A DNA stretch of 36,835 nt. It comes from Flavisolibacter ginsengisoli DSM 18119. Its GTDB lineage: Bacteria > Bacteroidota > Bacteroidia > Chitinophagales > Chitinophagaceae. Below the pieces are notes generated by a model, which worked only from the letters and a program-made list of their open reading frames with translations, made no database searches and had not been told where the DNA came from. A program made the translations under genes and the position numbers. Positions 27,248 to 35,024 of the stretch are shown in pieces (position 1 is the stretch's first letter; every line of letters begins with the position of its first letter). The DNA is taken from assembly GCF_900129295.1 (NCBI RefSeq), contig NZ_FQUU01000027.1, positions 1 to 36,835 of the forward strand, written 5' to 3'.

Positions 27248-27979
27248 TTACAGGTGCTGGTTCAGCATTCTTTGTAACACTGCCGGGTAGCTATCACCTT
27301 CTGTCTTTCCCTCACCCTGCATCCTGTATCCCTTTGTAATGCTATCTCCAAAGCAAACTACGGATTTAACCCCCGGCTTACAGTCCTTAATAGTTTCATA
27401 TACCGCGGCTGCAATGACCTTATAACCATTAGCAGTTGGGTGCACACCATCCGCAATTCCCATATTGGCTTCGTTCTGGAATAAGCTTTCTTTATCTGTA
27501 TTGGCTCCCCCACAGGCAGTGAGGATGGTGTTCAGGTCCACCAGTTTGCAGTTATTTTTTGCTGCCAGCCTGCGGATCACCATGTTCGCTGAATCAACCC
27601 GCGCCTGCGGTGCTTTAAGGTCGCCTTTGAACTGGGGTTTTCGTTGTACCAGGTATGGCGCATACACTGGCGGTATCGTCATCAAAACCAGGTCTGCCTT
27701 TTTTTTCAAACAGCTGATCAACTCCTGGTAGTTCTTTTCGTACTGTTCCATGCCCAGGCTCTTATCAGTGTGCAGCATATCATTGGTGCCCACCATCAAT
27801 ACCACCAGTTCCGGGTTCCTGCGCAGCACATCACGGTCAATACGTGCCAGCAGGTTGACAGTATTGTTACCATTAATACCTGCATTATAAACTTTTACTG
27901 AATCGGAAAACTGTCCTCCCCGGGCCATAGAGGTACAAAATAGCGATAACATAAAGAGTATTATAGAAAGAGTTTTCAT
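27248..27979 (-). CDS. Secreted SGNH/GDSL esterase with circularly permuted blocks
   Basis: Protein of 243 aa from the ATG at 27979. This start gives a signal peptide (MKTLSIILFMLSLFCTSMARG); a longer frame from 28051 would overlap the upstream gene. All SGNH blocks are present but rotated. First comes block II (YNAGINGNNT, G34/G37), then block III (MVGTND, N66) and block V (DGVHPTANGY, D177/H180). Only at the C-terminus comes block I with the nucleophile (VVCFGDSITKG, S213), followed by YPAVLQRMLNQHL, which normally precedes block II. The fold could still form, so it may be an active exported esterase or deacetylase. It is the last gene of the catabolic operon, 37 bases after the enolase-superfamily gene. 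A family mis-call is unlikely because every motif is matched. Confidence 0.88.
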   Translation of the reverse strand: MKTLSIILFMLSLFCTSMARGGQFSDSVKVYNAGINGNNTVNLLARIDRDVLRRNPELVVLMVGTNDMLHTDKSLGMEQYEKNYQELISCLKKKADLVLMTIPPVYAPYLVQRKPQFKGDLKAPQARVDSANMVIRRLAAKNNCKLVDLNTILTACGGANTDKESLFQNEANMGIADGVHPTANGYKVIAAAVYETIKDCKPGVKSVVCFGDSITKGYRMQGEGKTEGDSYPAVLQRMLNQHL

Positions 27980-28016: not shown

Positions 28017-29246
28017 TCATAATATCTTTTGATCCTGCTCCGCAGCATCAAAACGTGTCACTGCTTTATTAGTGATCTGCCAGTGATCTGAACTATGTGC
28101 TCTTACAAAATCTTCATCCACACTAATCCCAAGCCCATAGCCTCCTGGCACAACAGCGGAGCCGTTCTCCACCAGCAAAGGGTTTACCAGCACCTTATTA
28201 GCAACCGGGAACATATCCAGCTGGTGTTCCTGGCTTACAGGATCTTGAATGACTGAAGTAACCTGCCAGGTAGCGGCCACTCCTATAGCGGTGCATACAC
28301 CCAGGTGGGGAGCAATACGCAAGCCGTTGGCTTGTGCTGCTTCTATGATCTTCCATCCCCCGGTAATACCACAGCGCACCAGGTCGGGCTGCGCAATTTT
28401 CATGGCCTTCTCCCTGATCCAGGGCTCAAATTCCCGGATGGTCCTGAGCGGTTCTCCTATAGCTATTGGAGTTTGGATAGCTTTCGCCAGCCTGCTGTGT
28501 CCATGCACATCCTCCGGATCAATAGGAGATTCAAACCAGGCGGCTTTGAGTTCATCAAGCCCGCGGCCAATAGCATAGGCAGCATCATAATCATGACGGC
28601 AGATGGCATCAAAAGCCAGTTCTGCATCCCTACCAATGGCTTCCCTAATGGCAGCACATTCCTGCAGTGTATTTTCCACCGTATCACCAATAAAGATCTT
28701 CACACCCCTGAACCCTTCTGCCAGTTTCTCTTTGGCCAGTGCCTGTCTTTCGGCAAGCGTTGACCGGCGCAGTCCCGATACATACAGTGGCAGCTTTGAA
28801 TGGTATACAGTGCCCAGTAATTGTCCAATGGACTGTTTTGCGGCCTGGCCCTTTATGTCCCATACTGCCATATCAATAGCAGCAATAGCATCAATGGTGA
28901 AAGAAGCTGTATGCCCACGCACATGGTTCAGGTGATACAGGCGCTCATAGATGGCAGACGGGTCACAGGGATCCATACCGATAATGGCAGGTCCGAATAA
29001 ACGGGCAATAAGGGTAGCCGGCACTTCAGGCACCAGTGGGGCCTGTCCCTCACCCCATCCTACCAGCCCGGTATTGGTAGTGATCTTTACCAGGCAGGAT
29101 TCGGTCTGCCGGCTATAGGCATGCTGCCATTGCTTCTCAAAATAATAATCTGTACCCGGCAGGCGGTTGGGTGCATCACCATGTCCGCCAATACGGTAAT
29201 GGTGATCATATTTAAAAACAAAAACTTCAACGGTTTGAATCTGCAT
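28017..29246 (-). CDS. Enolase-superfamily (mandelate-racemase type) sugar-acid dehydratase
   Basis: Protein of 409 aa from the ATG at 29246 (MQIQTVEVFVFKYD). The N-terminal capping domain (~1-125) is followed by the barrel. Metal ligands fit D213 (AFDAICRHD), E239 (WFESPIDPED) and E265 (AIGEPLRT). The His-Asp dyad fits D288 (QPDLVRCGITGG) and H314 (APHLGVCTAIG). The usual K-x-K at the end of the second strand is K183-x-F185 (GVKIFIG), so one catalytic Lys is missing. It probably dehydrates an acid sugar to a 2-keto-3-deoxy acid using the His base. It lies 56 bases after the symporter gene. Confidence 0.88.
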   Translation of the reverse strand: MQIQTVEVFVFKYDHHYRIGGHGDAPNRLPGTDYYFEKQWQHAYSRQTESCLVKITTNTGLVGWGEGQAPLVPEVPATLIARLFGPAIIGMDPCDPSAIYERLYHLNHVRGHTASFTIDAIAAIDMAVWDIKGQAAKQSIGQLLGTVYHSKLPLYVSGLRRSTLAERQALAKEKLAEGFRGVKIFIGDTVENTLQECAAIREAIGRDAELAFDAICRHDYDAAYAIGRGLDELKAAWFESPIDPEDVHGHSRLAKAIQTPIAIGEPLRTIREFEPWIREKAMKIAQPDLVRCGITGGWKIIEAAQANGLRIAPHLGVCTAIGVAATWQVTSVIQDPVSQEHQLDMFPVANKVLVNPLLVENGSAVVPGGYGLGISVDEDFVRAHSSDHWQITNKAVTRFDAAEQDQKIL

Positions 29247-29302
29247 ATTACATTCTGTTACAAGTTCAGGGCACATGTGTAACCCTGCCTTTTATAATTA
29301 TC

Positions 29303-30874
29303 CTAACCAAATTTGATATAAAAAAACAGGATCACTGAAGTGACAAGAGCCCACCAGATAAAGGGATTGCGCAATCCCCGCTGCTGGTATTTTTCTGCCG
29401 CAGGCAGGCTCAAACTATCTTTCTTCCAGATCAATCCTTTCAGCTCCTCTTCCGTTTTTCCAGGTGTATACAGGCTTACCACTACACAGGCGGCCATACA
29501 TGTCCAGAAAACAATACCGGTACGGTTGTAAAAAGGCATGTGGGGGAAGAAATATTCAATGGCAAACGACAGGGGCACTGTTAAGAGGCCTGCCGTCAAC
29601 GCCCCGGCATGCGTGGTTCGCTTCCATAAGATCCCCAACAAAAACATGGTGGCAATACCCGGGGTAAAAAGTCCATACGCACTCAAAAGATACAGGAATA
29701 CCGGCCTGTCTGAATGGGTGATCAGGAGGGCAGTGCACAAAATACCCAATACGATTACTACTACTCCTGAGCGCCGGCCAAATTTCAAGGACTGCGCATC
29801 GGTGGCATCCTTGCGGAAATAGGGCAGGTACACATCCATGGTAAGGATGGTGGTGCAGGAGTTGATGGCCCCGGAAAGATGCGACATAATGGCCGCAATC
29901 AATCCCGCCATCACCAATCCTGAAAGTCCGGAAGGAAGCAGGTTTTGTACCAGCGTCGGAAATACCAGGTCAGCCTTTTCCAGGTGTGGAAATAATTTAG
30001 GCGCCACCAGTGCAGGACCAATGATCACGATGGGGATCAGCAATTTTAAATAGTCCGCAAAGATCACCCCCATACGGGCATGCCATTCATTCTTTGCCGC
30101 CAGTGTACGCTGCACAATAAACTGGTTGGTGGCGCAATAGAATACACTGATACAGATAGCACCACCCAGGTACATGGTCCATGGAAAGGCAGGATCATTG
30201 GCCGGCAATAGCATGTCCCAGTCCTTGGATGTTTCCAGCACAGCAGAAATACCACCAGCAGCTCTTATAGTAAAAAAAGACAAGGCTACCATACCCAAAA
30301 TCAGTACTCCTAACTGGAGCATCTCCGTCCAGATCACGGCACGAAGTCCTCCCAGGATCGTATACAGGCCGGTAGCTGATGCCAGGGCCACCACGCTCCA
30401 TACCATGGGAATATCCAGTAATGAATGCAGCGACAGCGCACCCAAATAGAGTACAGCCCCGATCTCCACGAAAATATAGGTGAACACTACCAGGATCGAA
30501 TAGTTGGTCCTGGCTGCAGCACCGAATCTTTTTTGCAGGAACTCCGGCATGGTATAAAAACCATTGCGCAGGTAGTAAGGCAGGAAGATCCACAGCAAGG
30601 CATTGAACCCAAGCAATACTGCTCCCCATTCTGTAAGAATGGCCACAAAGCCGCGGCTGTAGGCCACGCCCATGGTACCCACCAACTGGTGACTGCTGAT
30701 ATTGGCAGCCATGATACTGCCACCTATCATCCACCAGGGCAGCTTATCTCCAGCCAGGAAATAATCCTTTTTGGTATTCCCCCGTTTGGAAGAAGCATAA
30801 AGCCCAAGGGCCAACACTCCCAGGATATAAATACCGAATACGGCAGCGTCAAGTATGGAGAGTTTTGATCCCAT
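29303..30874 (-). CDS. Sodium:solute symporter (SSS/SLC5 family)
   Basis: Inner-membrane transporter of 523 aa with about 13-14 helices. Family marks are DYFLAGDKLPWWMIGGSIMAANISSHQLVG in the first helices, the internal GLRAVIWTEMLQ segment, and AAIMSHLSGAINSCTTILTMDVY. It resembles SGLT-like sugar symporters of Bacteroidota rather than proline or pantothenate carriers. In this operon it is the likely importer of the sugar or sugar acid. It lies 52 bases after the DapA-like gene. Confidence 0.93.
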   Translation of the reverse strand: MGSKLSILDAAVFGIYILGVLALGLYASSKRGNTKKDYFLAGDKLPWWMIGGSIMAANISSHQLVGTMGVAYSRGFVAILTEWGAVLLGFNALLWIFLPYYLRNGFYTMPEFLQKRFGAAARTNYSILVVFTYIFVEIGAVLYLGALSLHSLLDIPMVWSVVALASATGLYTILGGLRAVIWTEMLQLGVLILGMVALSFFTIRAAGGISAVLETSKDWDMLLPANDPAFPWTMYLGGAICISVFYCATNQFIVQRTLAAKNEWHARMGVIFADYLKLLIPIVIIGPALVAPKLFPHLEKADLVFPTLVQNLLPSGLSGLVMAGLIAAIMSHLSGAINSCTTILTMDVYLPYFRKDATDAQSLKFGRRSGVVVIVLGILCTALLITHSDRPVFLYLLSAYGLFTPGIATMFLLGILWKRTTHAGALTAGLLTVPLSFAIEYFFPHMPFYNRTGIVFWTCMAACVVVSLYTPGKTEEELKGLIWKKDSLSLPAAEKYQQRGLRNPFIWWALVTSVILFFYIKFG

Positions 30875-30926
30875 TTGCTTTCCTTAAGATTCAGAGTTAA
30901 GAATGAAACATTTTTCTCAAGTGCGA

Positions 30927-31838
30927 TCAGTCCATTGGCAGTCCCGCATCCCGGGCCACCTGTAGCAACTGTTCCTGGTACCAGGGCTCAAAAAATGCCG
31001 GCTCAGGTCCTCTGACTTTAGCAGAAGAGATCACCCCTTTTTTAACCAGTATCTCTTTCCACAGGCAGCGGTTGGCCACATCTTTTTCATAGGCTGCCAG
31101 CCTGGAAAAAGGTGTAAAATAACTTACGGCTTCCCTTTGTTTCCCTTCCTCCAGCAGTTGCCAGGCTCTGTTAAATTCTGCCGGCATATAGCAGGCAGGC
31201 ATGGTACCGCAACAACCTGCCTCATGTTCTTCAGGCAGAAATACTCCGCTGTTGCCGCCAAATACACCCGCAAGCTGGTTGTTGGGATGTGATAACAGCT
31301 TCCGGGCCTTTTGAATAATATTACCCGACTCCAGTTTGATGTATTTCAGGTTCTCCAGCTTTGATGCAAGTGTTATTAGAAAATCCACAGGCAGGGAAAT
31401 GTCACTCAACTGGTGATCCTGTAAAATAATTGGTATCCCTACCGCCTTGTCAATGGCTGTAAAATAGGCTTCGATCTCTCCCAGTCCCGAACGCCACCTT
31501 CCAAAGAAAGGAGGCATGCACATCACCGCATCAGCGCCTGCATCTTCGGCCGCGCGGGCCAGCGTTGCAGCACAATAGGAAGAAGGATGGTTGACAGTAA
31601 CTACTACGGGTATGCGCCCCGCCACTTTTTTGATCACAAAGGCGCTCAAGTCCTTTTTCTCTTCATCCAGCATCAGGTGGCCTTCAGAGGCATTGGCCCC
31701 GGTCACCAGGCCATGCGCCCCCTTCTGAACCAGGTATTCAATCAGGTGCTCCTGGCTTTCATAATCAATACGCTCATCCTCGTGAAAACAGGTGCCCAGT
31801 ATCGGGAAGATGCCTCTAAATGGTTTTTGTTCAGCCAT
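30927..31838 (-). CDS. DapA-like (dihydrodipicolinate synthase family) aldolase/lyase
   Basis: TIM-barrel class I lyase of 303 aa. The Schiff-base Lys fits K168 (LKYIKLESG). The glyoxylate-binding-type motif is GLVTGANASEGHLM (residues ~43-56). The usual catalytic Tyr motif (YNxP) is replaced by LQDHQ (139-143), so this is not a true DapA. A Tyr-less subgroup of sugar-acid aldolases is more likely. It may split a 2-keto-3-deoxy acid to pyruvate and an aldehyde. It lies 6 bases after the permease gene and 52 before the symporter gene. Confidence 0.88.
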   Translation of the reverse strand: MAEQKPFRGIFPILGTCFHEDERIDYESQEHLIEYLVQKGAHGLVTGANASEGHLMLDEEKKDLSAFVIKKVAGRIPVVVTVNHPSSYCAATLARAAEDAGADAVMCMPPFFGRWRSGLGEIEAYFTAIDKAVGIPIILQDHQLSDISLPVDFLITLASKLENLKYIKLESGNIIQKARKLLSHPNNQLAGVFGGNSGVFLPEEHEAGCCGTMPACYMPAEFNRAWQLLEEGKQREAVSYFTPFSRLAAYEKDVANRCLWKEILVKKGVISSAKVRGPEPAFFEPWYQEQLLQVARDAGLPMD

Positions 31839-31844
31839 AACAGG

Positions 31845-32573
31845 TTATAGAATTAAATAGATTAAAGACAGCAATGAAGACACGATCAAAAACACGGTCA
31901 CTACCTTTTGGAATATCCCATTGGGCAGCAGCCGGAAAGAAAACATACCCAGCACATAGCCCAACAAAGAGGGTATGATCAGCTTTATCAACAGGGTCCA
32001 TGTACCTGGAGCAAAATCAGCCTGCAGCGTCATGGTGATCACACCAAAACTCATGATCAGGAACAGGTAAGAAAGCATGGTGTTCCGCATTTGCTCCTTA
32101 TTGGTAAAAGCTGCATTCAGGTGCAGTGCTACCAGCGGACCGTTGATGCCCGTAGAGGGTGTAAGCAATCCACTGAAAAATCCACCCACCCATGTCATAT
32201 ATTGATGGGCAAAGAATACTTTGTTTTTCGTCAGCGATACTACTGAGGCCAGCAGGATAACGGCAAGGGTCACCTGCTTCAGTACCACTGCATGCACATA
32301 ACTGATGATGGCCAGACCGGCTACCAAACCCAGGGATGCACTCAAGATTAGTTTTAATAAAGTGAGGCGATGTATGGACCTGAGATTCTTACCCGAAAAC
32401 ATGGCGATCAGCGAAGTCAGAACAGACATGCACAGGTTGAAATAAACAAGCTGGGTAAAATCCATCTGGTTTACCAACAACAGCGTGGTAGCTATGGCAA
32501 AACCAAAGCCTATCAGGCCCTGTATCCAGCCCGCGATCATAAAAGCAACAAATACCAGGAGTATCGATGGCAT
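31845..32573 (-). CDS. TauE/SafE-family permease
   Basis: Polytopic membrane protein of 242 aa with about 7-8 helices. It has the two-repeat TauE/SafE pattern: an N-terminal GWIQGLIGFGFAIATTLLLV, and in the second half GGFFSGLLTPSTGINGPLVALHLNAA. Family members export or import sulfite, sulfoacetate and other organic anions. Here it may move an acid product or intermediate. Its ATG overlaps the stop of the preceding SDR gene (TGATG), indicating translational coupling. Confidence 0.88.
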   Translation of the reverse strand: MPSILLVFVAFMIAGWIQGLIGFGFAIATTLLLVNQMDFTQLVYFNLCMSVLTSLIAMFSGKNLRSIHRLTLLKLILSASLGLVAGLAIISYVHAVVLKQVTLAVILLASVVSLTKNKVFFAHQYMTWVGGFFSGLLTPSTGINGPLVALHLNAAFTNKEQMRNTMLSYLFLIMSFGVITMTLQADFAPGTWTLLIKLIIPSLLGYVLGMFSFRLLPNGIFQKVVTVFLIVSSLLSLIYLIL

Positions 32574-33343
32574 CAGCGGGTCATTTTCGAGGTCAGTGAA
32601 AGCCCGCCGTCCACCAGTAGAGTGGTGCCGGTTATATTCATATTACTAAAGGAACAAAGCATGCCCACATGTGCCGCCACTTCTTCCACCGTCACCAGCG
32701 TATGCATTGGGATGGAGTCCAGGTGGGTTTGCAATAATGCAGGGTCTTTTTGCTGGTTCTTTTTTGACAAACCTCCTTCTACAATACCGGGGGCTATTTC
32801 ATTGACCAGTATTTTATCAGCAGCCAGTTCCAGCGCCATTGTCTTACACAACATGCGCACAGCAGCTTTTGAAATGCAATAGGAAGATATGCGGGCATTG
32901 GGCCGCTCTGCTGCCCAACTGCCTATGAAAACGATACGGCCCTCAAGTGCTGCTTTTTTCATCCGCTGCGCCGCCTGCACCGCTATATGGTAACTGCCCC
33001 AGAAGTTGACATCCATTTGCTTCTGAACTTCTTTCACATCCAGTTCGGTGAGCTTCCCCACTACCACAATGCCGGCATTGGCTACCACCACCTGCGGTGT
33101 ACCCCAAGTGGCTTCCACCTTGTCAAGCCAGGCAGCTACCTCCTCTCCTGACGATACATCAGCCCTGGTATACAGCAGCTCATTACAACCTGCAGTCCTA
33201 AGCTGCTCCAGTTGTTGACCAGCCGCAGCTTCATCCGCCAGGTCACTGAGTGCTACACGCATGCCCAGTTTACCCAGGTGAATGGCAATGGCCTGCCCAA
33301 TATCTCCCAGTCCTCCGCTGATCAATGCTATTTTGTTCTTCAT
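32573..33343 (-). CDS. SDR-family oxidoreductase 1
   Basis: Protein of 256 aa from the ATG at 33343 (MKNKIALISGGLGDIGQAIAIHLG). The longer frame would start inside the preceding gene. The nucleotide loop is SGGLGDIG (residues 9-16), then ANAGIVVVG, and the catalytic residues are S142, Y155 and K159 (FIGSWAAE, SYCISK). It likely oxidises a sugar or 2-keto-3-deoxy acid with NAD(P)+. It is third in the operon, 10 bases after the FAH gene and overlapping the permease start by one base. Confidence 0.93.
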   Translation of the reverse strand: MKNKIALISGGLGDIGQAIAIHLGKLGMRVALSDLADEAAAGQQLEQLRTAGCNELLYTRADVSSGEEVAAWLDKVEATWGTPQVVVANAGIVVVGKLTELDVKEVQKQMDVNFWGSYHIAVQAAQRMKKAALEGRIVFIGSWAAERPNARISSYCISKAAVRMLCKTMALELAADKILVNEIAPGIVEGGLSKKNQQKDPALLQTHLDSIPMHTLVTVEEVAAHVGMLCSFSNMNITGTTLLVDGGLSLTSKMTR

Positions 33344-33353
33344 GCCTGGAAAC

Positions 33354-34214
33354 TTAAACCATTTTATTTTCAGTGTAGCCCAGCTTTTCAATTTCAACCC
33401 TAACCACGTCACCGGGTTTCATCCATTCCTTTCGCGGCATGCCCATGATCACACCTTCCGGCGTACCTGTCAGGATAAGATCCCCGGGTTCAAGGGTCAT
33501 ATATTCGGTTAAGAATGCAATGATCTCTGCAACTGTAAAAACCATATCAACCGTATTGGAATTTTGACGCTGTTCACCATTAAGGGAGCAGGTAAGTTGC
33601 AACGATTGCGGATCACCCACTTCATCTGCTGTCACCAGGTACTTACCTAAAGGCAGAAAGGCATCCAGGCTCTTACCCATCAGCCATTGAGAACTCATAA
33701 ACTGCAGGTCGCGACAGGAAAGATCGTTGGCCACACAATAGCCCAGTACATTGTCCAGTGCTTCTTCACGGCGCACATGCTTGCATTTCTTGCCGATGAC
33801 CACACCCAACTCCACTTCATAATCGAATTCAACACCCACAGGTCCTAAAGGCACATCATGACCATAGTCTGTGAGTGTATTGCTATACTTGGTAAATACT
33901 ACCGGCACGGTTGGTACCGCCATGCCGCTTTCAATGGCATGCCTGCGGTAATTCAAACCAATACAAATGATCTTGGAAGGATGAGGCACACAGGGTCCGA
34001 TAGACAGGCTATGTTCCCGTAATAGTTTGGCAGGTTCTTTAATCCCATTCGCCACCTGCTTTTTGATTTCTGCCACATCTTCCAGGGTCAGTGGATCTTC
34101 CGGCCGCCAGTCGGCATGTTTTGCTTTGAGGTAATCCGTAATATCCAACACGCCTTCGTTGGTTACTATTCCCGGGTATAGTTTATTCTCTTTTCGGTAG
34201 TATAGGATCTTCAT
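33354..34214 (-). CDS. Fumarylacetoacetate hydrolase-family protein
   Basis: Protein of 286 aa. The FAH-like C-terminal fold carries metal ligands in GVEFDYEVELGVVIGKK (E133, E135) and an Asp in ANDLSCRDLQ. The N-terminal part (~1-75) is the usual small domain, and GDLILTGTPEGV lies near the C-terminus. Relatives hydrolyse 2,4-diketo-3-deoxy acids (from L-fucose or L-rhamnose) to pyruvate and lactate or glycolate, or act as acylpyruvases. With two SDR genes and a dehydratase gene beside it, the diketo-acid hydrolase role is favoured. It lies 66 bases after the first gene. Confidence 0.93.
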   Translation of the reverse strand: MKILYYRKENKLYPGIVTNEGVLDITDYLKAKHADWRPEDPLTLEDVAEIKKQVANGIKEPAKLLREHSLSIGPCVPHPSKIICIGLNYRRHAIESGMAVPTVPVVFTKYSNTLTDYGHDVPLGPVGVEFDYEVELGVVIGKKCKHVRREEALDNVLGYCVANDLSCRDLQFMSSQWLMGKSLDAFLPLGKYLVTADEVGDPQSLQLTCSLNGEQRQNSNTVDMVFTVAEIIAFLTEYMTLEPGDLILTGTPEGVIMGMPRKEWMKPGDVVRVEIEKLGYTENKMV

Positions 34215-34280
34215 GCTGTTCTTTCGTTTGAAATTGTTTATCGTGGACTACATGGTTTCTTTTACAATAGTACGAAGCCA

Positions 34281-35024
34281 TTAATAGGTGGCACGTCCAC
34301 CCGTCAGGTCAAATGTAAAGCCGGTAGTGAAACTATTTTGTTTAGATACAATGTATAATGCCAGGTCAGTGGCTTCATCAAGCGTACCACAGCGCTTCAT
34401 GGGGATCTTGTCCGTCATGTATTTCACCTGCGCCTCGGGCATGGCATCCACCAATGGAGTTTGTATCACGGCCGGGGCCATCGCATTCACAGTGATCCCT
34501 GTCTCTGCATATTCCTTTCCCTGCACCTTGGTCATACCAATCACTGCCGCTTTGGAAGCCGAATAGGCCAGCATGCCCGCGTTGCCTTCTTTTCCCGCTA
34601 TGGAAGCCAGGTGCAGGATCCTTCCATAATTTGCCTTCAGCATATAGGGCAATACTGCTTTGGAAGTATAGAAGCTGCTCATAAAGTTCAGTTCAAATAC
34701 CTTGTGCAGGTCCTGGCTGCAAACTTCATGTGTTTTAGTATTTGTCTTCCCGGTAATGCCCGCACAGTTGATCAGTATATCCACACAACCCAATTCTTCC
34801 ACCACCTTTTGCACCGAGGCTTCCACGGCTTCCTGGCAGGTAATGTCCATTACTTCCAGTCGGGCTACGGAAGCATTTGCACCAAAGGCTTCTTCCAGCG
34901 CTTGCCTGTTAATATCATAAGCCACCAACCTGGCACCTTCAGCTAGTAAACGCCTTGATATAGCTAATCCTATTCCTGAAGCTGCACCTGTTACCAGCGC
35001 TACCTGGCCGGAAAAATTTCCCAT
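34281..35024 (-). CDS. SDR-family oxidoreductase 2
   Basis: Protein of 247 aa. TGAASGIG (residues 12-19), NCAG (86-89), S141, and Y154-x3-K158 in AYSASK are all intact. It ends FTTGFTFDLTGGRATY. This is a classical FabG-like sugar or hydroxy-acid dehydrogenase, resembling 2-keto-3-deoxy-L-fuconate or L-rhamnonate dehydrogenases, though substrate cannot be read from sequence. It is the first gene of the eight-gene operon, with a TATGTTTG -7 box ~40 bases upstream. Confidence 0.93.
   Translation of the reverse strand: MGNFSGQVALVTGAASGIGLAISRRLLAEGARLVAYDINRQALEEAFGANASVARLEVMDITCQEAVEASVQKVVEELGCVDILINCAGITGKTNTKTHEVCSQDLHKVFELNFMSSFYTSKAVLPYMLKANYGRILHLASIAGKEGNAGMLAYSASKAAVIGMTKVQGKEYAETGITVNAMAPAVIQTPLVDAMPEAQVKYMTDKIPMKRCGTLDEATDLALYIVSKQNSFTTGFTFDLTGGRATY

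What the first reader, a model, noticed from the sequence alone, without database searches (positions are those of the whole stretch)
27248..27979. Circularly permuted SGNH/GDSL hydrolase
Seen: after a signal peptide the protein starts at block II (NAGINGNNT) and continues with GTND and DGVHP. Only then does it present VVCFGDSITKG and YPAVLQRML, the N-terminal part of ordinary SGNH enzymes. All catalytic residues (S213, G34/G37, N66, D177, H180) are intact in one frame. Known: SGNH enzymes normally have the GDS block near the N-terminus. Inference: a tandem duplication followed by loss of the outer halves produced a true permuted enzyme with new termini and a short linker (ETIKDCKPGVKS).
Basis: partly seen in the sequence, partly recalled or inferred. 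Interest (0 to 1): 0.82.

Follow-up and report, generated by a model that had tools for sequence, protein, structure and literature searches.

The report
Rewired enzyme with reordered catalytic blocks
A small, probably secreted bacterial enzyme, likely one that strips ester groups from sugars, carries its active-site pieces in a rotated order, and the same rotation is found in a widespread family of related enzymes in several bacterial phyla.

Summary
Window 27251-27979 (-) encodes a 243-aa SGNH/GDSL hydrolase whose blocks run II-III-V-I. Its two parts match Pfam PF13472 in swapped order. Against a profile of 44 ordinary relatives, all rotations of the domain peak at the linker, 157.7 against 127.5 bits. 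It is no assembly error: a 74% orthologue with the same operon sits in a one-contig genome, and 84 distinct permuted sequences were aligned. Ser213, Asp177, His180 and Asn66 are invariant; AlphaFold2 gives a confident model (pLDDT 94). Permuted enzymes form one group in the trees (93/95 and 94/88; only 68 in a larger quick tree). Known SGNH permutations (AlgX/AlgJ, PatB1, WssI) put block V first; an order with block I last was not found in the papers searched. In relatives the neighbours are often SusC/SusD-like genes and FAD oxidoreductases; in the window the gene closes a sugar-acid catabolic operon. Best reading: a carbohydrate O-acyl esterase, probably a deacetylase, descended from one ancient permutation. 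Activity, substrate and the route of permutation are not shown.

The parts
27248..27979 (-). circularly permuted SGNH/GDSL hydrolase gene, 243 aa plus stop (P0001)
27920..27979 (-). N-terminal signal-peptide-like segment, residues 1-20
   Evidence: hydrophobic N-terminus read from sequence; helix 4-17 of low confidence in the model; least conserved part between orthologues
27863..27886 (-). block II NAGINGNN, residues 32-39 (oxyanion Gly)
   Evidence: G34, G37 conserved in 90% or more of 84
27779..27790 (-). block III GTND, residues 64-67 (oxyanion Asn66)
   Evidence: N66 and D67 invariant in 84
27641..27643 (-). Arg113, in an insert usually written R-H in the family (R-K in the window protein)
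   Evidence: R in 70 of 77 permuted rows, H next to it in 60 of 77; Cys before GDS plus R-H is shared with 7 of 44 ordinary relatives
27437..27451 (-). block V DGVHP, residues 177-181 (catalytic Asp177, His180)
   Evidence: D177, G178, H180 invariant in 84
27365..27379 (-). new linker joining old C-terminus to old N-terminus, residues 201-205
   Evidence: rotation score peaks here; between helix 183-200 and strand 206-211; H180-to-G211 gap 28-33 residues in 84 of 84
27335..27355 (-). block I CFGDSIT, residues 209-215 (nucleophile Ser213)
   Evidence: C209, G211, D212, S213, T215 invariant in 84
27260..27289 (-). first SGNH helix (YPAVLQRMLN), residues 231-240, now at the C-terminus
   Evidence: secondary structure; Y231 invariant in 84
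28017..29276 (-). sugar-acid dehydratase of the enolase superfamily, gene just upstream on the same strand
   Evidence: best NCBIfam models are gluconate/galactonate-type dehydratases, all below cut-off; 78.5% orthologue next to the permuted gene in G015
29303..30874 (-). sodium/solute symporter
   Evidence: TIGR00813 above cut-off; 89% orthologue in G015
30927..35024 (-). rest of the presumed operon: DapA-like, TauE-like, SDR, FAH-type hydrolase, SDR
   Evidence: 'TauE-like' recognised by eye (no NCBIfam match)

Best explanation
It is a complete SGNH esterase whose chain was circularly permuted once, in a distant ancestor. The old N-terminal strand and nucleophile block (GDSIT) were moved behind the old C-terminal helix through a linker of about 5 residues, and new ends opened in the loop between block I and block II. 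It should fold like an ordinary SGNH enzyme, with Ser213 attacking the ester, His180/Asp177 activating it, and Ser213 NH, Gly37 and Asn66 forming the oxyanion hole. The most likely job is removing O-acyl (probably acetyl) groups from carbohydrates taken up or broken down by the neighbouring genes, in the periplasm or outside the cell here. Shown by calculation: gene order, permutation, conservation, one grouping in the trees, genomic context, a confident predicted fold. Inferred: activity, substrate, cellular place, route of permutation.
For: Swapped Pfam match that becomes one full match after rotation. Rotation scan peaks at the linker; in 80 of 84 members the cut at 203 beats native order and 5 random rotations; 44 of 44 ordinary relatives beat 5 random rotations unrotated, though these 44 built the profile. 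84 distinct sequences with S213, D177, H180 and N66 invariant. AF2 pLDDT 94, pTM 0.87, five core strands present once each. Best solved folds are SGNH enzymes, among them acetyl xylan esterases 7ddy and Axe2 and a sialic acid esterase. One group in the trees. Protein under constraint in both parts: pN 0.17 overall and in the moved block I part, pS 0.79 and 0.87. Context: of 62 neighbourhoods, 39 hold a FAD-oxidoreductase-cluster gene, 33 SusC-like, 28 SusD-like, while 9 of 38 genomes related to the window's hold any PF12831 gene (a background not matched to those loci). Fusions to a FAD oxidoreductase (L117), a DUF6259 protein (L080) and a beta-helix-type protein (L092).
Against: No activity is known for any member that I found. 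In 47 of the 50 listed structure matches the alignment ends by model residue 205, because such aligners keep sequence order, so the placing of block I rests on the model's confidence and not on a measured overlay. The window's own genome has no PF12831 gene at the threshold, so the commonest partner is missing here. Single-origin support falls to SH-aLRT 68 with 121 rows, and the bootstrap had not settled. One relative (L188) is read from a start that leaves no signal peptide, and 15 of 67 assessable rows lack a hydrophobic start by a crude test, so secretion is not universal.
Confidence: 0.72

Rival explanations
1. Assembly or frameshift artefact: two neighbouring SGNH gene pieces joined by mistake.
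For: Draft genome of 55 contigs.
Against: 74% orthologue with the same order and same operon in one-contig genome G015; 84 distinct sequences, and a record titled as a complete chromosome holds one (L062); 30 or 32 residues between H180 and G211 in 77 of 84.
Confidence: 0.01
2. A real permuted fold, but no longer a carbohydrate esterase: it acts on another ester or lactone of the pathway, for instance a sugar lactone made by the operon's dehydrogenases.
For: The window operon resembles a non-phosphorylating deoxysugar/sugar-acid pathway (FAH-type gene best matches 2,4-didehydro-3-deoxy-L-rhamnonate hydrolase, below cut-off), and no lactonase was identified among the nine window genes scanned there; a relative without a signal peptide exists.
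Against: The window protein has a signal-peptide-like start while such lactones form in the cytoplasm (recalled); in the family at large SusC- or SusD-like or FAD-cluster genes lie in 44 of 62 neighbourhoods; in G015 an SMP30-like gene (named by eye) lies beside the operon.
Confidence: 0.15
3. An acyltransferase rather than a hydrolase, working like AlgX or PatB1, which are also permuted SGNH proteins.
For: The permuted SGNH proteins in the passages seen are O-acetyltransferases (PMC9487903, passages; PMC10302187, passages).
Against: Different cut point; canonical GDSIT, GTND and DxxH motifs instead of, for AlgX/AlgJ, GTSYS, Tyr and DxH; context is catabolic. Recurring neighbours were not scanned for membrane acyltransferases; none was recognised by eye.
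Confidence: 0.07

Closest known systems
AlgX / AlgJ, WssI and BcPatB1 (permuted SGNH-like O-acetyltransferases)
   Same: Circularly permuted SGNH core with Ser-His-Asp triad (PMC9487903, PMC4148444, PMC10302187; passages).
   Different: Their block V comes first (H-S-G-N; H-S-G-Y in AlgJ/AlgX and H-S-G-D in WssI by residue); here block I comes last (G-N-H-S). AlgJ/AlgX have GTSYS, Tyr in block III and DxH; here GDSIT, GTND and DxxH are canonical. They carry cap or extra elements; the window protein is about the size of the core alone.
Ordinary SGNH domains of Planctomycetota/Verrucomicrobiota/Lentisphaerota with C-GDSIT and R-H motifs (L121, L122, L124, L126, L129, L130, and L192 from G1054)
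   Same: The first six lie in the ordinary group nearest to the permuted one (92/57 for that group); L192 joins L126. All seven share Cys before GDS and the R-H insert with the permuted family. L122 has FAD-oxidoreductase-type stretches before and after its SGNH domain, L124 after it.
   Different: Canonical block order; six of the seven are domains of larger proteins. The FAD stretches of L122 and L124 are only distant relatives of the permuted enzymes' neighbours (best stretch 41 and 48 bits, against 604 for the fusion L117). In one search their position next to the permuted group is not resolved.
Acetyl xylan esterases AlAXEase (7ddy) and Axe2; Phocaeicola/Bacteroides vulgatus sialic acid esterase (7pzg/6njc)
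   Different: Block order canonical; in these rows the alignment covers model residues about 22-202.

Membership tests
SGNH hydrolase superfamily (fold and catalytic residues) | Ser, Gly, Asn and DxxH of blocks I, II, III, V all present | tested here: met
   S213, N66, D177, H180 invariant in 84; G34, G37 in 90% or more
SGNH hydrolase superfamily (fold and catalytic residues) | alpha/beta/alpha fold | tested here: met
   By prediction only: pLDDT 94; top PDB matches are SGNH enzymes
SGNH hydrolase superfamily (fold and catalytic residues) | triad and oxyanion-hole residues together in space | not testable with these tools
   Coordinates of the model are not returned
Canonical Lipase_GDSL_2 domain (PF13472), colinear | blocks in order I-II-III-V in one stretch | tested here: not met
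   Two stretches in swapped order; one stretch only after rotation
AlgX/AlgJ/DHHW permuted SGNH-like proteins | block V first (order H-S-G-N) | tested here: not met
   Order here is G-N-H-S
AlgX/AlgJ/DHHW permuted SGNH-like proteins | altered block motifs (GTSYS or KDS; DxH or DHHW) | tested here: not met
   CFGDSIT and DGVHP read
Carbohydrate esterases (acetyl esterase activity) | removes acetyl groups from glycans | not testable with these tools
   Needs an assay; context only

The most novel reading that the evidence does not exclude
A second, independent natural circular permutation of the SGNH fold (order G-N-H-S), with a single origin. It arose on the Planctomycetota/Verrucomicrobiota side from a still-living ordinary sister group that shares its Cys-GDS and R-H marks and, at the level of Pfam family, its FAD-oxidoreductase partnership, and later spread to Bacteroidota sugar-use loci. 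The esterase and the FAD oxidoreductase would then act as a pair in a not yet described oxidative route of glycan breakdown.
Probability: 0.37. Interest if true: 0.68.

Novelty: new variant of a known kind. Interest (0 to 1): 0.52.

Why it matters
Natural circular permutations with a recognisable unpermuted sister group are useful test cases for how folds can be recut without loss of function. Here the nucleophile moves from the start to the end of the chain while all motifs stay canonical. Search profiles read such proteins as two partial hits, so this family is likely to be annotated only as a generic GDSL protein. The recurring pairing with a FAD oxidoreductase points to an unexplored step in glycan use.

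Tried and rejected
Assembly error was rejected by orthologues. A two-domain remnant was rejected: 79 of 84 members end within 50 residues of C-x-GDS, and the other 5 (L080, L093, L113, L114, L117) are longer proteins. A search for intermediates with block I on both sides found none. Tandem ordinary SGNH genes do exist in two loci of the phylum of G811 (L191, L194), but the one copy of each kept in the tree (the other dropped there by a 65% identity filter; names checked) falls in a different ordinary group, so they do not show the route. The tree without the block I columns was made so that the moved piece could not drive the grouping (its bootstrap had not settled). The larger tree was a quick one with weaker support and leaves the nearest ordinary group unresolved. 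After the filing check I scanned L122 and L124 with a profile of 35 FAD-cluster neighbours: only distant matches, so the claim that both sides share one partner family was narrowed and the odds of the novel case lowered from 0.40 to 0.37.

Biases and dropped rows. The genome-contig scan used a pattern with Cys before GDS, so the invariance of C209 is partly built in for those loci; loci from profile searches were not chosen so. Some matches counted carry a stop codon inside (4 of 41 full-length rows; 1 row). One permuted row (L150) was left out of the tree because the script did not find its GDS motif. Neighbourhoods: 62 of 64 chosen were read (L060 and L110 dropped because the script did not find the focal gene). 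Of the SusC, SusD, FecR, sigma, sulfatase and FAD labels only a representative of the FAD cluster was scanned with Pfam; the rest were recognised from sequence, and 7 of 42 FAD-cluster members are shorter than 500 residues. The background for PF12831 comes from relatives of the window's genome, not from the genomes of the 62 loci. A PF12831 plus polysaccharide literature search gave nothing, nor did a search pairing SGNH with FAD oxidoreductase and SusD, judged from its listing. CE20 and other esterase papers were checked for permutation and gave none in the passages seen. Absence of a permuted hit in the PDB lists is not proof of absence.

Full report
WHAT IS THERE. The minus strand at 27248-27979 encodes 243 residues. 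After a hydrophobic start the order is NAGINGNN (block II), GTND (III), DGVHP (V), then CFGDSIT and YPAVLQRML (block I and its helix). PF13472 matches residues 28-188 at profile positions 33-178, and the last 49 residues alone match positions 1-31. Moving the tail to the front gives one match over 1-178 with 108.7 bits, against 96.7 in native order.

IS IT MORE THAN CHANCE. I built a profile from 44 ordinary relatives and scored every rotation of the window domain. Native order gives 127.5 bits and the maximum is 157.7, reached when the cut falls at residues 199-205, the linker. For 80 of 84 family members the cut at 203 beats native order and five random rotations; over all 84 the mean gain on native order is 26.0 bits (0.2 to 37.8). 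All 44 ordinary sequences beat five random rotations unrotated, but they built the profile.

NOT AN ARTEFACT. G015, a one-contig genome of the same genus, has a 74% identical protein in the same order. Around it lie the enolase-type gene, symporter, DapA-like, TauE-like, FAH-type, one of the two SDR and the AraC-type genes at 64-89% identity. Between the two orthologues pN is 0.17 and pS 0.79 (saturated); the moved block I part has pN 0.17 as well, the signal-peptide-like part 0.40. Both catalytic parts are under constraint.

FAMILY. Profile search of 394 genomes of the family found 20 with a match, full-length permuted in each. In 395 genomes of the phylum 7 had matches at the threshold: 4 (own genome included) hold a full-length permuted one and 3 only partial ones. 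In 288 genomes of the phylum of a Lentisphaeria record (G811) 45 had matches, 28 of them full-length permuted, 26 without an internal stop, some with two to four copies. In 246 genomes of the phylum of a Planctomycetota record (G813) 9 had matches at a stricter threshold, 8 with a full-length permuted one, 7 without an internal stop. The named scan gave 80 loci, 67 of them one-frame full-length permuted, from records titled Bacteroidota, Verrucomicrobiota, Lentisphaerota, Planctomycetota and Fibrobacterota members. From 94 permuted ORFs, 84 distinct rows were aligned: N66, D67, D177, G178, H180, G185, C209, G211, D212, S213, T215 and Y231 are invariant. In the wider set of 77 rows S213, N66, D177, H180 and C209 stay at 77 of 77, G34 is 76, G37 75, D67 76, G185 75 and Y231 76. 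Five core strands occur once each in the AF2 model (pLDDT 94, pTM 0.87), and the linker lies between helix 183-200 and strand 206-211. The gap from H180 to G211 is 28-33 residues in 84 of 84, and 79 of 84 end within 50 residues of C-x-GDS.

ORIGIN. With 51 permuted and 29 ordinary rows the permuted ones form one side of a branch (93/95; 92% of 200 bootstrap trees). The same holds without block I columns (94/88; 97%; bootstrap not settled), and with 77 and 44 rows, though weakly (SH-aLRT 68, quick tree). In one search the nearest ordinary rows are nine planctomycete, verrucomicrobial, kiritimatiellal and lentisphaerial domains (grouped at 92/57), and early branches of the permuted group come from Lentisphaerota, Verrucomicrobiota and Planctomycetota. 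In one search this neighbourhood is unresolved. The trees are unrooted, so direction is inference. Seven of 44 ordinary rows share both the Cys before GDS and an R-H insert with the permuted ones. Two of these carry FAD-oxidoreductase stretches in the same protein: L122 before and after its SGNH domain, L124 after it (its start is cut by the contig edge). These are distant from the FAD neighbours of permuted genes (best stretch 41 and 48 bits, against 604 for L117). L121 is fused to a 3-keto-disaccharide hydrolase domain, L126 to SASA and sulfatase domains. No intermediate with two copies of block I was found, so tandem duplication with loss of the outer parts remains the usual textbook route (recalled), not a result.

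CONTEXT AND FUNCTION. In 62 neighbourhoods a FAD-oxidoreductase-cluster gene is present in 39 (same strand within two genes in 36), SusC-like in 33, SusD-like in 28, any of these in 44, sulfatase-like in 10. As background, 9 of 38 relatives of the window's genome hold a PF12831 gene at E 1e-20, 22 matches in total, and the window's genome holds none; this set is not matched to the 62 loci and includes some genomes with permuted genes. One planctomycete member is a direct fusion of the permuted SGNH and PF12831 (L117). In the window the gene is the last of a presumed operon with a sugar-acid dehydratase, a sodium symporter, a DapA-like enzyme, two SDRs and an FAH-type hydrolase whose best model is 2,4-didehydro-3-deoxy-L-rhamnonate hydrolase, at 231 bits under a cut-off of 500. 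This looks like a non-phosphorylating pathway for a deoxysugar or sugar acid (pathway knowledge recalled). The simplest job for a mostly exported SGNH enzyme in such settings is removing O-acyl groups from the sugar substrate. N-termini support export in part: 52 of 67 assessable rows (of 84) have a hydrophobic start by a crude test.

AGAINST THE LITERATURE. In the passages seen, the 2022 review of SGNH hydrolases describes permutation for AlgX/AlgJ and the DHHW family (BcPatB1), order H-S-G-N (PMC9487903, all its 'permut' passages). PMC4148444 (passages), PMC10302187 (passages, adds WssI) and PMC5697884 (passage) say the same kind of thing. Searches for permuted SGNH, GDSL or acetylesterase papers gave no paper on a G-N-H-S order that I could see; one search listed 20 of 1,167, and the library lacks most subscription journals. 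PMC5408684 (passages), PMC3779223, PMC12313940, PMC5863359, PMC13276840, PMC6385246 and PMC12419801 (SGNH passages only) do not describe one in the passages seen.

VERDICT. A real, conserved, apparently undescribed permutation variant of a well-known enzyme fold. The permutation itself is about as certain as sequence can make it; activity and substrate are inference.

Noticed in passing
L122:6378-10430 and L124:2-2830: Planctomycete proteins with an ordinary SGNH domain and PF12831-type FAD-oxidoreductase stretches in one chain (before and after it in L122, after it in L124); L121 is SGNH plus 3-keto-disaccharide hydrolase, L126 is SASA plus SGNH plus sulfatase.
   Followed up: partly
L091, L092, L095, L099, L101: Proteins of about 670 residues in flavobacteria and relatives in which a beta-helix-type region (Pfam Beta_helix below cut-off in L092, the one scanned) carries the permuted SGNH domain at its C-terminus.
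   Followed up: partly
window 28017-35024: Operon resembling a non-phosphorylating deoxysugar or sugar-acid pathway under a divergent AraC-type regulator; no lactonase was identified among the genes scanned.
   Followed up: partly
L188:4674-9549 and L052:6245-8654: An ordinary and a permuted SGNH gene lie in the same gene run with SDR and (by eye) Gfo/Idh-like genes; the L188 permuted copy has no signal peptide from the start read.
   Followed up: no
L191 and L194: Tandem pairs of ordinary SGNH genes in genomes of the phylum of G811, the sort of arrangement a permutation by duplication would need, though not of the nearest ordinary group.
   Followed up: partly
L096:7886-8666: Sphingobacterium humi copy of the permuted gene is split between two reading frames.
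   Followed up: no
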